From Sympetrum striolatum (lineage: Eukaryota > Arthropoda > Insecta > Odonata > Libellulidae): a stretch of 64,000 nucleotides of DNA. The translations under genes were made by a program, and so were the position numbers. The notes under the pieces were generated by a model. The model did no database searches. It was not told the origin of the DNA and saw only the letters and a list, made by a program, of their open reading frames with translations. The stretch covers positions 1,178,001 to 1,242,000 of the forward strand of contig CANPUZ010000061.1 in the NCBI GenBank assembly GCA_947579665.1, read 5' to 3'. Of this stretch, positions 31,260 through 35,600 are shown one piece after another; within the stretch, counting starts at the first letter, position 1, and every line of letters begins with the position of its first letter.

Positions 31260-31755
31260 AGCATATGCCTGTTTAGTACAGACGTTAAGGTGCAGCGACT
31301 ACCGCATATCTTAAGGGGCGTTTGCGATCAAATGATTTTTCAATGTCTGACGCTCGAATTTCGGGGTGCCCATTACTTACGAAGGCGCGTTATTTTCGAG
31401 TTAACACATTAATTTATTGATTCATGCATCATAACAAAACTGCGACCTCCAATAAAAAAATGGGAAATTATTGCTCCATAATTCGCTCTAAAAATAATCG
31501 TGTATCATTAGGTGATATAAATTCATATCAAATTGCTTTCTCGGGATATTTTTACTTCATAAGCAATGGTTGTGTGAAGAGGGAGGGCTAGAAGTTACCC
31601 TGGGAATCAGCACTGCTTTCATCTCCCATATTCCCATCCATCCTGAATGGCGATTTGTTGCCAAGTTTCGTATGAAAACAAATCCCATGCATCCCAATAA
31701 GTCTCATCTTCTGCACCATGATTATGTAACTGTGAGAAGGGTGAGAGCGACGTCG
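31260..31755. other. Unassigned flank of the Transib-like element
   Basis: An 84-codon plus-strand frame (31,570-31,824) runs into the transposon arm and is not recognised. The five bases before the element are cgtcg. Confidence 0.4.
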
Positions 31756-32328
31756 CACTGTGGGCTAGAATCGAAAAAAGCTGGCCAAAAATACGAAAGT
31801 GGTTTTTTTGAGTGCGGACTTTGAAACTTCGCATGGTCATTCTTGAATAAATTTTGCATATAACTGCGAAATAATTTCTCTTGATTCTCACGCGTTACAA
31901 TTCTACAGGGGGTCAAAGTTGACCAAATTTTGCGAAAAATGCCGTTCTACTATTTTTCGAGAAATTCTTCAACTTCAAAACGATGCTGAATCCATTAAAA
32001 AAAAAGTTATTGAATAAAAAACATCACCACGTTATAAACCTGTACTTTATCTTTCACAAACTATAATTTAATGATTGCGAATGAATAATGGCATATTTTA
32101 TGCAACAAAATGGCGAACTCTCGTTTTAGAGAAACTTTTTACCTAAAGCGAGGAAAATAGTTGAGACGGACTCCGAGGAACATGAAGATATTTATACCAC
32201 GTTGTTCTTTGAAGCTTTCTGAAGAGGAATCTGAAATAAAACCTTGCAACAATTTGCTCCCCCGATAATAATAACGAATTTTCGACAACACTGCATAGGC
32301 AAATCCGCGCGGCGGCCAATGGCCCTCC
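31756..32328 (+). repeat. Left inverted arm of the Transib-like element
   Basis: Matches the reverse complement of 34,815-35,386 along its length with few differences. It ends at the ccgcgcggcgg...ggccctcc segment. A 64-codon frame here (minus) and its mirror copy in the other arm are the same sequence read twice, not two genes. Confidence 0.85.
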
Positions 32329-32623
32329 GGGAAGATCTCGGTTTGAGAGGAACTAGGAACGTTTTTCGATGATATGTTTTGATGTTTATAAGCAAAGTTT
32401 TTCCGCTATTAATATGAGAAATGAGAAGTCATAATTTAAAACCCCAGTTCCATTCCGTGTGATCGGTGAAAATGTTTAATTTGGCTGTATTTTAAGACAT
32501 GTCTATTAAGACGTCTATGACGTCGCATTTTCTTTCATATCGCTATATCGCTAATTTATCATCAAAATCATGCAGTCAAGAAGAACTCTAAAGAAACTTC
32601 TAGTTTTCACCTTACCTTCTGCC

Positions 32624-33962
32624 TTATATACAATCCTCGTCTGAGGAGTCTGCATCTCCATACGCGATTACCTCTTCTTCATTCAGGATGAGGAGCTGCT
32701 TCACTTCTCTACTTAGAATCCTGGATCTATTTGCTGCCCGAATTAGTGCTGACATAGATATTAGTGGATCAGAAGTAAGAAGCAATCTTCGCACTAAGTC
32801 TTTATTCTTCACTTCATTCGTAGCAACTCGGGAGTGTTTCCTTGTAAAACGTTCTCGGAATCTCCTCGTGTCCTTATTTCTTGCTTCTATCGCCTCTTCT
32901 GAGAGTTGGCCCAGTGGTAGAATTGCTTCTTTTGCAATTTCAGCTCCGTGAATCAGCACTTTATCAATTTTTGGTGGCATATAGTACCATGGATACAACT
33001 TTACATACATCTCTGCTGTAGCCCCGCAATAATCGTCAAATGCTCTTTCATTCAGAGTTAATCCGCTTGAAATTGCCTTTAAGATCGTAGCAAATATTTT
33101 TATAAGATCCTCGTTTATCCCTGAAAAGTAAATGTTTATGTATTCAATATTGAAGCATCATAGCTAAAGTAAGAGTTACTTTGGCTTCCTTTACTACTTC
33201 GTAGCTAGGATACAGCCTATGACCATGACTTTTAGCTGTTTCACGGAGAATTTTATATTGAGTTTCTCAACTCAGAAGATATAATTAGTGATAATGCTTC
33301 TTCTCCTGACAACTGAGATTGCACATGTTCGCTTTTCTTCCACCTAGAAAGAACTCTTTGCCCTTGTAGGTGTCGTTGTGGTAATTTCTTTCAGCAACTT
33401 CGAAGGAGCTTCATTTCCTTCATCTCTTAGAGTCATCCTTGCAGAATAAGACAGTTCAGCTATGGAGAGTGTGGATCTAATTGTTTCTGTTTTCCTTCGT
33501 TTCGATCTGTCAATTGAAAAATGTAAATCTACTTCCGGCCGTCCTCTTGCGTCTACCAAAATGAATTTAAGTCCGATTGTTCGTTTCTTAGATGTACATT
33601 ATCAATTTTAAATACTAAACATTTCAAATCACTATTTTATACGTACCTGGGGTCATAGAAGTACTTGGTAAGTTCTGGATAACAATATCAGGAAAATTAA
33701 TATTTACATTGTGCCAACTGGAATTGCGCAGAATAAACCTTTCATTAACACGGAAACTTTGTTTCCATTTTCTTGAATATGCCGGAAGAAAACTATTCTT
33801 CAGATAAACAGTAAGAGCTTCCTTCCCATCTATGGATCTTTCTAAGTGAAGTTTTCTTGTCAAAAAATCCATTAAATGCTGCTTTTTACTAGAAAATGAC
33901 TCATTCTTTTCCTCCATCATTTTATTATATTGCGTTAACCGACTAATTCGCAGATTAGTCAT
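32624..33962 (-). pseudogene. Transib/RAG1-like transposase, internally deleted and frameshifted
   Basis: Exon I (33,962-33,647) begins MTNLRISRLTQYNKMMEEKN and ends before a CCAG|GTACGT donor. A 94-bp intron leads to exon II (from 33,552), which reads DARGRPEVDLHFSIDRSKRR. It frameshifts after TPTRAK into WKKSEHVQSQLSGEEALSLI, and again into HRLYPSYEVVKEAK. A 59-bp intron-like gap (33,121-33,179) leads to exon III: INEDLIKIFATILKAISSGL, LTLNERAFDDYC, LYPWYYMPPKIDKVLIHG, LSEEAIEARNKDTRRFRER and LLLTSDPL, ending DADSSDEDCI. In the RAG1/Transib family an E-(x)n-RNK-type region like LSEEAIEARNK carries the third catalytic acid. The segment with the two aspartates and zinc-binding cysteines should lie between EVVKEAK and INEDL and is absent. 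Identity is inferred from this motif plus the CACTGTG ends. Confidence 0.65.
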
Positions 33963-34814
33963 GTTTTTTTTACGGAATTACAAGCAACGTATAAAGGCGA
34001 TAAACTAGAAACCCAATACAATGTTTCTAATGTCTGAAAATGCAATAGAGATTCCATAACTTTATCTATTCTACAGTATGACGTTAAGAAAATAATACAG
34101 TAGACAGTTTCAAATAACGATGAGAACATTTCACATGCATAAAGAAAATGATTGTTTTCACCAGGATACTTAGAATTTACAAGTAAAAAGAGAAAGTGAT
34201 TTAACAAAACAACTTACCATAAAAATATCCTCCAAAAAGTGTCGACAAGTGAACCAGGAAATGCTGAAGGGAACTACCCGAACTTCTTGAATATACTACA
34301 CAAAGAATGCAAGGAGCTACTGAGAGAGCACAAGAGCACAACTTACTTCTTCCACAGGCAAAGCCAAACTGTAGTTTTCATAGTTTGCGAAAATTTGGAA
34401 CTAGAAAGCACGAAAATGAAGTTTGAAGGGTAACCGTTAATCCGCAAGAAGCACAGCTGAATGCAATAAAACGAACCGAAAGTTTAACTCGGGGACACTG
34501 CGGCACACGCCCACGTGTGGGCTGGTTTACAATGGTATTGAGGGTCTGTGAGAAATAGTATAGCTCAAAAACATCAAAGACAGCTTTCATAATATTTTAC
34601 AAAGTGAAAATCAAAAAATGGTAACTCTATTCTGATACTTGATGAAAGATATACGCTGTTGCTAAATTCACTCTTCCTTTGAGAATGATGGTTGAATGTA
34701 TATTATTTTGCTCATTATTTCTTCGTCTACAGTTTGTAAAAAGTTAATTTCAGCATTCAAAAGTTATCATTGAGAGGCATGAAGGTTCGAAGGTCTTCAA
34801 ACACTTCTCTTTCT

Positions 34815-35386
34815 GGAGGGCCGTACTCCGCCGCGCGGATTGGCCCATGCAGTGTTGTCGAAAATTCGTTATTATTATTGGGGGAGCAAATTGTTGCAAG
34901 GTTTTATTTCAGATTCCTCTTCAAAAAGCTTCAAAGAATAACGTGGTATAAATATCTTCATGTCCCTCGGAGTCCGTCTCAACTATTTTCCTCGCTTTAG
35001 GTAAAAAGTTTCTCTAAAACGAGAGTTCGCCATTTTGTTGCATAAAATATGCAATTATTCATTCGCAATCATTAAATTATAGGTTGTAAAAGATAAAGTA
35101 CAGGTTTATAACGTGGCGATGTTTTTTATCCAATAACTTACTTTTAATGGATTCAGCATCGTTTTGAAGTTGAAGAATTTCTCGAAAAATAGAAGACCGG
35201 CATTTTTCGCAAAATTTGGTCAACTTTGACCCCCTGTAGAATTGTAACGCGTGAGAATCAAGAGAAATTATTTCGCAGTTATATGCAAAATTTATTCAAG
35301 AATGACCATGCGAAGTTTCAAAGCCCGCACTCAAAAAAACCACTTTCGTATTTTTGGCCAGCTTTTTTCGATTATAGCCCACAGTG
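34815..35386 (-). repeat. Right inverted arm of the Transib-like element
   Basis: Mirror of 31,756-32,328. The outer end reads tagcccacagtg on the plus strand, that is CACTGTGGGCTA inward. High arm identity beside a decayed gene suggests arm-to-arm conversion or a foldback origin. Confidence 0.85.
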
Positions 35387-35389
35387 CGA

Positions 35390-35600
35390 TGGGGTGACTT
35401 CGGCCACTAAATATGTTTCTTAAATATCACCTACAAAATTAAGTATATGATTAATATTACGAATATTTATATTTTAAAATGTTTAAATTATATTATCATA
35501 TAGTGCTTTTCTTAAGCTATTTTCATCGTACCTTTGATACATAGGCCCAGCACTGACTTTTTGGCTGTTCCTAGACATGGCCGAAGTCACCCCACAATAC
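35390..35600. mobile_element. Small MITE with 17-bp inverted ends
   Basis: TGGGGTGACTTCGGCCA at 35,390-35,406 is exactly inverted at 35,578-35,594. TGCGAT occurs at 35,385-35,390 and 35,601-35,606, a possible 6-bp target duplication. Its left end lies only three bases beyond the Transib-like terminus. No coding capacity. Superfamily unknown. Confidence 0.6.

What the first reader, a model, noticed from the sequence alone, without database searches (positions are those of the whole stretch)
31756..35386. Transib/RAG1-like transposon with RSS-like ends
Both termini read CACTGTGGGCTAnAATCG then AAAAAAGCT inward, a heptamer-spacer-A-rich-box layout like Transib ends and the V(D)J signal. The minus-strand gene between them has a C-terminal LSEEAIEARNK...RRFRERF region that I relate to the third catalytic acid of RAG1/Transib. 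The left flank cgtcg fits the CGNCG target preference. The combination supports a Transib assignment that neither piece alone would.
Basis: partly seen in the sequence, partly recalled or inferred. Interest (0 to 1): 0.8.

Follow-up and report, generated by a model that had tools for sequence, protein, structure and literature searches.

The report
Deleted Transib transposon with RSS-like ends
This is a real but crippled copy of a jumping gene from the family that gave rise to the antibody-gene recombinase; fuller relatives in the same insect genome carry an unexpected change at one of the three catalytic residues that such enzymes are thought to need.

Summary
Window 31756-35386 (3631 bp) is a Transib element: its C-terminal frame matches the solved HzTransib transposase, the ends recur in 36 compared genome copies, and 23 of 26 insertion sites have exactly 5-bp duplications, 17 of the 23 CGNCG. 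The window copy itself has an imperfect duplication (CGTCG/CGATG) and a changed right heptamer. It is non-autonomous: 1,211 bp holding the first two catalytic positions are missing at 33179/33180; the Glu codon remains. The remnant frame evolves neutrally, so mobilisation in trans is inferred.

The unexpected part lies outside the window. Family copies that keep the second catalytic position (D225 of HzTransib) encode Asn there: 18 of 18 readable and 97 of 97 exact-context genome matches, as does an Ischnura protein. D126 and E436 are kept in the two subfamilies compared, with dN/dS 0.11. A working D-N-E Transib is the bold reading; no activity was tested.

One end reads CACTGTG and the other CACAGTG in most copies compared; the wider family is often CACAGTG at both, so passive inheritance suffices.

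The parts
31756..35386 (-). Non-autonomous Transib element, 3631 bp (gene remnant on minus strand)
   Evidence: ends and copies
31751..31755 (.). Left flank CGTCG (5-bp target, duplication imperfect in this copy)
   Evidence: 5-bp duplications at 23 of 26 sites
35387..35391 (.). Right flank CGATG (2 mismatches to the left flank)
31756..31762 (+). Left heptamer CACTGTG
35380..35386 (-). Right heptamer, inward CACTGTG (its closest relatives, e.g. L012, have CACAGTG here)
31756..32346 (+). Left terminal inverted repeat, ~590 nt
34797..35386 (-). Right terminal inverted repeat, ~590 nt
33645..33962 (-). Remnant of transposase exon 1 (106 residues, 92% to L051)
33356..33550 (-). Remnant of exon 2, first piece
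33268..33411 (-). Remnant of exon 2, second piece (another frame)
33180..33266 (-). Remnant of exon 2, third piece (another frame)
33179..33180 (.). Junction of the 1,211-bp internal deletion that removes the first two catalytic positions
   Evidence: L051 1593-2803 absent
32624..33124 (-). C-terminal exon, open frame; its 128-aa ORF matches residues 378-487 of chain 6pqn_A (HzTransib)
32885..32887 (-). Codon for the third catalytic acid (E436 of HzTransib)

Best explanation
A recently mobile, internally deleted (non-autonomous) Transib. Shown: Transib-type ends (CACWGTG heptamer at the tips of ~590-nt inverted repeats), 5-bp duplications favouring CGNCG in the family, a transposase remnant that keeps only the C-terminal Glu of the triad, and undeleted relatives in the same genome. 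Inferred: a transposase made elsewhere binds the conserved terminal ~45 bp of both ends, cuts at the heptamer by nick and hairpin as reported for HzTransib (PMC6941560, passage), and pastes the element into a staggered 5-bp target. The most likely source is the family's own undeleted copies, whose transposase carries Asn at the second catalytic position (D-N-E); a sister family with D-D-E is the alternative.
For: HzTransib is the only PDB match, E=1.2e-25 for the window's C-terminal frame and 1.4e-124 for the exon-joined relative L051. Copies: 36 of 40 fetched compared, after dropping 2 of the window's own duplicated segment and 2 with one end found; merged to 26 sites, 23 have exactly 5-bp duplications, 0 at 3, 4, 6, 7 or 8 bp, 17 of 23 CGNCG. 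Pairwise interior divergence among the 36 copies has median 1.6%, maximum 8%. The outer 56 nt vary at 0.17-1.04% in seven 8-nt bins (position 4 left out), against 0.5-2.0% in 200-nt bins, most above 1%. Deletion of 1,211 bp against L051; that segment is present at 94% or more over 1,200 bp or more at 7 places (40 of 620 candidates scored). Remnant frame: 19 synonymous, 63 nonsynonymous, 6 stop changes, ratio 1.08; 21 of 36 open.
Against: The window copy's own duplication is imperfect and its right heptamer is altered, so this copy may be immobile now. Two internal 200-nt bins are as little variable as the tips. The N-terminal pieces of the remnant matched nothing in the PDB (only a chance hit). 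No excised or empty site was shown. The trans-acting enzyme is inferred; sister families here with intact D-D-E (F041, F043, L048, L049) could mobilise it instead.
Confidence: 0.93

Rival explanations
1. The Asn at the second catalytic position kills the family's transposase; all copies, deleted or not, are mobilised by a related D-D-E Transib that recognises similar ends.
For: L052, a D-type sister in this genome, has an end CACAGTGGGACAAAATCCGAAAAAGCTGGCC, similar to this family's, and a MIDGK motif. Other families here keep D-D-E: F041, F043, L048, L049. D225 is a catalytic residue of HzTransib by mutational analysis, as reported in PMC6941560 (passages). Ischnura elegans also has a D-type relative, P0207.
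Against: Exons 2-6 of one copy each of two Asn subfamilies evolve under strong constraint: dN/dS 0.11, dS about 1.24, 552 codons, no stop in the compared stretches (exon 6 alone is saturated at synonymous sites). A dead enzyme has no evident reason to keep this. All 97 exact-context matches carry Asn.
Confidence: 0.35
2. The two ends must differ at heptamer position 4 (CACTGTG with CACAGTG, exact reverse complements), a pairing or end-discrimination rule analogous to the 12/23 rule.
For: 23 of 26 sites are heteromeric (permutation P about 1e-4, which ignores common descent); the A/T orientation relative to the interior appears in three groups of the interior tree (branch supports not looked at); in L014 the two TIRs differ at only this one of 540 columns; 0 of 36 paired exact ends on C1-C5 are T/T. 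One element whose TIRs are 78% like the window's and one of another family (F043) are also A/T.
Against: 12 of 36 pairs are A/A; elements F041, F042, L048, L050 and L053 are A/A, L050 apparently of the same family as F043. Inheritance of one ancestral T plus interior inversion between long TIRs explains the rest.
Confidence: 0.1
3. The C-terminal remnant is a working truncated protein, such as a repressor, kept by selection.
For: Open in 21 of 36 copies.
Against: Nonsynonymous to synonymous ratio 1.08, not different from neutral (Fisher P=0.89).
Confidence: 0.03
4. A different superfamily with CAC ends (CMC/Chapaev-like or another).
For: CAC-type termini occur in several superfamilies (recalled).
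Against: Transposase match is to HzTransib alone in the PDB; 5-bp mostly CGNCG duplications.
Confidence: 0.01

Closest known systems
HzTransib (Helicoverpa zea; PDB 6pqn series)
   Same: Homologous transposase over chain residues 8-487 (E=1.4e-124 for L051); 5-bp duplications and long TIRs reported for Hztransib, size 3518 bp (PMC1852546, passages).
   Different: Window copy lacks the middle of the gene; fuller relatives have Asn at D225; the gene here has about six exons (inferred from separate open blocks).
Ischnura elegans uncharacterised protein LOC124169231 (P0006)
   Same: Closest relative on the tree, support 0.99; 72% identical over 30% of the query, 62% over the 165-residue C-terminal alignment; also MINGK.
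   Different: Predicted protein of 291 aa that starts at the MINGK motif and so lacks the D126 region; no ends examined.
V(D)J recombination signal (12/23 RSS) and RAG1
   Same: 24 of 26 sites carry the consensus heptamer CACAGTG at one end or both; RAG1 and its signals descend from Transib (PMC4411706, passages; RAG1 letters at the Glu recalled).
   Different: No nonamer shown; no RAG1 chain matched in the PDB search at E<=10.
ProtoRAG and RAG-like (RAG1L-RAG2L) transposons
   Same: CAC heptamer-like ends and 5-bp duplications (PMC8289069, PMC7204232, passages).
   Different: Closest solved protein is a Transib transposase; a RAG2-like gene was not searched for.

Membership tests
Transib superfamily | Transposase homologous to Transib | tested here: met
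Transib superfamily | TIRs beginning CAC with a heptamer-like tip | tested here: met
Transib superfamily | 5-bp target duplications, CGNCG preference | tested here: met
   family: 23 of 26 sites, 17 of 23 CGNCG; the window copy itself is imperfect
Transib superfamily | First catalytic Asp (D126) | tested here: met
   present in L051, L061, L064 and L081; absent from the window copy through deletion
Transib superfamily | Second catalytic Asp (D225) | tested here: not met
   Asn in 18 of 18 readable copies that keep the position (L056 not readable) and 97 of 97 pattern matches. Filed with Transib by descent (tree), ends and duplications, as a variant at this residue
Transib superfamily | Catalytic Glu (E436) | tested here: met
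   window codon 32885-32887
Transib superfamily | Cut-and-paste by nick and hairpin | not testable with these tools
   biochemical
RAG-like (RAG1L-RAG2L) transposon | RAG1-type protein closer than Transib | tested here: not met
   only HzTransib matched in the PDB
RAG-like (RAG1L-RAG2L) transposon | Convergent RAG2-like gene | not tested
   no RAG2 search was made
V(D)J-type RSS | Nonamer at a 12- or 23-bp spacer | tested here: inconclusive
   4 of 9 at spacer 12, 5 of 9 at 23; best 6 of 9 at 10, 11, 22 and 24

The most novel reading that the evidence does not exclude
An odonate-type Transib clade transposes with a D-N-E active site: Asn has replaced the second catalytic Asp, is found in every copy that could be read in this genome and in an Ischnura relative, and has been kept through dS of about 1.2 under purifying selection. 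In an alignment of 229 Transib proteins (222 database proteins, L051 and 6 own-genome families) the only alternative to Asp among 218 residues is Asn, 7 cases and 6 inferred changes, which hints that the RAG/Transib active site can use Asn at this metal position.
Probability: 0.5. Interest if true: 0.7.

Novelty: new variant of a known kind. Interest (0 to 1): 0.45.

Why it matters
The element itself is a new member of a known superfamily. The D-to-N change matters because the three carboxylates are taken as essential in RAG1 and Transib. A lineage that amplified and stayed under selection with Asn there would change what is thought required for nick-and-hairpin chemistry, and it can be tested directly. 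The genome also holds much more Transib sequence than the 'only one or at most a few copies' of autonomous elements described as typical (PMC4411706, passage): 914 exact ends of this family, and 16 of 71 listed protein matches covering at least 560 residues of the query, 10 of those 16 without a stop (65 of 3060 candidates scored; one of the ten, C46:88790604, shows 3 stops in the longer alignment).

Tried and rejected
Heptamer asymmetry as a universal rule: rejected, since A/A elements are common. RNA editing of AAC to GAC at the Asn codon: not supported; the following intron is only slightly above shuffled identity (0.81 against 0.73) and L081 does not share the local fold of L051, L061 and L064. 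A compensating acidic residue in the Asn proteins: none fixed. Selection on the remnant frame: none seen (one search used a wrong frame for that part and is not used for it). Pfam gave only sub-threshold chance matches or none; PF26100 appears only as a precomputed mark, and its name was not seen. N-terminal pieces against the PDB: nothing, a chance match at E=0.25. Viral contigs: no relative. A first scan of other families' ends missed them because loci were too short; longer stretches gave them. A genome search with the C-terminal protein did not complete. Patterns for the F043 family (not repeated) and for the second Asn subfamily did not complete. No empty-site search was made.

Literature on the Asn: one search found 0 papers; one search found 167 papers with at least two of three terms, of which I saw a listing of 8, none naming Transib. 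I therefore do not claim it is unpublished.

Full report
Observation. The window sits in a 1.35-Gb genome.

Ends and target duplications. One search scored only 40 of 4564 candidates, so its copy list is a lower bound. I fetched 40 loci: 2 were dropped because only one end was found (L034, L035) and 2 because they are the window's own duplicated segment (L002, L003), leaving 36. Merging copies that share flanks leaves 26 sites; L030 was merged with L019, although it lies at the same host-repeat site in opposite orientation and could be a separate insertion, and L005 stands for L004, which has lost one flanking base. Of the 26, 23 have identical flanks of exactly 5 bp and none of 3, 4, 6, 7 or 8 bp; the three failures include the window copy. 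Of the 23, 17 are CGNCG. Columns 1-46 of the ends show 0 or 1 variants each over 52 ends, apart from column 4. The outer 56 nt vary at 0.17-1.04% per 8-nt bin, against 0.5-2.0% in 200-nt bins, most above 1%; two internal bins near 0.5% are equally low.

Gene remnant. The C-terminal frame matches HzTransib alone in the PDB at E<=10. D126, D225 and E436 are quoted from PMC6941560 (passages); chain positions 109, 208 and 419 follow with a constant offset of 17. The window keeps only the Glu codon, at 32885-32887. Locus L051 is an undeleted relative, 94-96% identical along the parts shared with the window element; it shows that 1,211 bp are missing at 33179/33180. That segment occurs at 7 places with at least 94% identity over at least 1,200 bp (40 of 620 candidates scored). 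Among the 36 copies the remnant frame shows 19 synonymous, 63 nonsynonymous and 6 stop changes, ratio 1.08, and is open in 21 of 36: neutral. The copy is therefore non-autonomous and must be moved by a transposase supplied in trans; that step is inferred.

Heptamer position 4. In 23 of 26 sites one end reads CACAGTG and the other CACTGTG (16 T/A, 7 A/T, 2 T/T, 1 A/A), although in many copies the two repeats are otherwise nearly identical (0 to 33 other differences in 540 columns, and 77 in L040, which has a gap). The A/T orientation relative to the interior appears in three groups of the interior tree. Genome-wide there are 745 exact A ends and 169 exact T ends (each call listed only the first 100 places). 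On the part of C1-C5 covered by both lists (32 T and 100 A ends), 36 convergent pairs are 24 A/T, 12 A/A and 0 T/T, with 52 A and 8 T ends unpaired. Of the other families' elements measured, one is T/A and five are A/A. A derived T at one end of an expanding subfamily, with later inversion of the interior between the long repeats, explains this without a rule. The window copy, T at both ends, has probably lost its A by mutation or by exchange with another copy.

The Asn. In family copies that keep the position, the residue aligned to D225 is Asn (codon AAC) in L051, L061, L064 and L066-L080, 18 of 18; the surrounding motif is MINGK or MVNGK in 14 and further altered in L075, L076, L078 and L079. 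L056 could not be read there, and L052, a sister family, has Asp. Several of the 18 are themselves partly deleted elsewhere. A pattern that accepts either residue found 97 exact matches in the genome, 97 Asn and 0 Asp; it covers one sequence context only. The L051 protein aligns Asn388 to D208 (=D225), Asp284 to D109 and Glu596 to E419. L051 and L081, two Asn subfamilies about 74% alike in DNA, have exons 2-6 without a stop in the compared stretches and dN/dS of 0.109 over 552 codons, dS about 1.24 (exon 6 alone is saturated; exon 1 was not compared; L051 has a frame shift just before the compared part of exon 5, which L061 lacks). On a tree of 229 sequences L051 pairs with the Ischnura protein P0006, also Asn (support 0.99), inside a group whose other readable members, L052 and Ischnura P0207, have Asp. 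In that alignment the column holds 211 Asp, 7 Asn, 11 gaps and nothing else; D126 and E436 show no substitution where present; parsimony gives 6 changes. P0006 lacks the D126 region, and the other five Asn proteins (567-728 aa) are database predictions that may be dead copies.

Reading. Constraint with Asn through this much divergence, and recent amplification, favour a working Asn enzyme; mobilisation by a D-type sister is the main rival. No chemistry was tested. RNA editing is not supported.

Comparison with print. Passages read: PMC8289069 (most Transibs symmetric; ProtoRAG asymmetric), PMC7204232, PMC4411706, PMC1852546, PMC6941560; for PMC8355894 passages and section 6. PMC1131882, which I recalled as the original Transib paper of 2005, is not held; nothing is taken from it. 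Searches for Transib with damselfly (0 papers) and Odonata (1 paper, PMC5199201, a MITE database seen in the listing only) turned up no description of this family that I saw.

Noticed in passing
window 36032-64000: Satellite array of 164-bp units (329-bp dimers), about 28 kb, GC near 25%, starting about 650 bp beyond the Transib.
   Followed up: partly
window 35390-35594: Short stretch with perfect 17-bp inverted ends TGGGGTGACTTCGGCCA, starting 3 bp beyond the Transib end; it may be linked to the damaged right flank.
   Followed up: partly
L001-L003 (C73 twice, C77): The Transib with about 1.5 kb on each side is present three times, flanks 98.5-99.9% identical, all with the same imperfect duplication and T/T ends.
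   Followed up: partly
L004-L011 and L040: Nine copies share the same flanks: over the 1.5 kb held on each side in L004-L011 and the 0.7 kb held for L040. One Transib insertion seems to have been amplified inside a larger repeat.
   Followed up: partly
L019 and L030: Two copies sit at the same site of a host repeat in opposite orientation.
   Followed up: partly
merged L045/L042 (C46, near 88.79 Mb): Another Transib family with 564-nt TIRs 99.6% identical, heptamer CACACTG at both ends, duplication CGACG.
   Followed up: partly
L043/L044 and L050: Two copies that look like one other Transib family, one T/A and one A/A at heptamer position 4.
   Followed up: partly
L037 near 4153: A diverged end CACAGTGGGCTAGCATCG with CGTCG beside another copy; the matching stretch is 75% identical.
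   Followed up: no
L014, L024, L039 and other copies: In many copies the two ~590-nt TIRs are nearly identical to each other while sharing variants absent from other copies, as if repeats within a copy were homogenised.
   Followed up: partly
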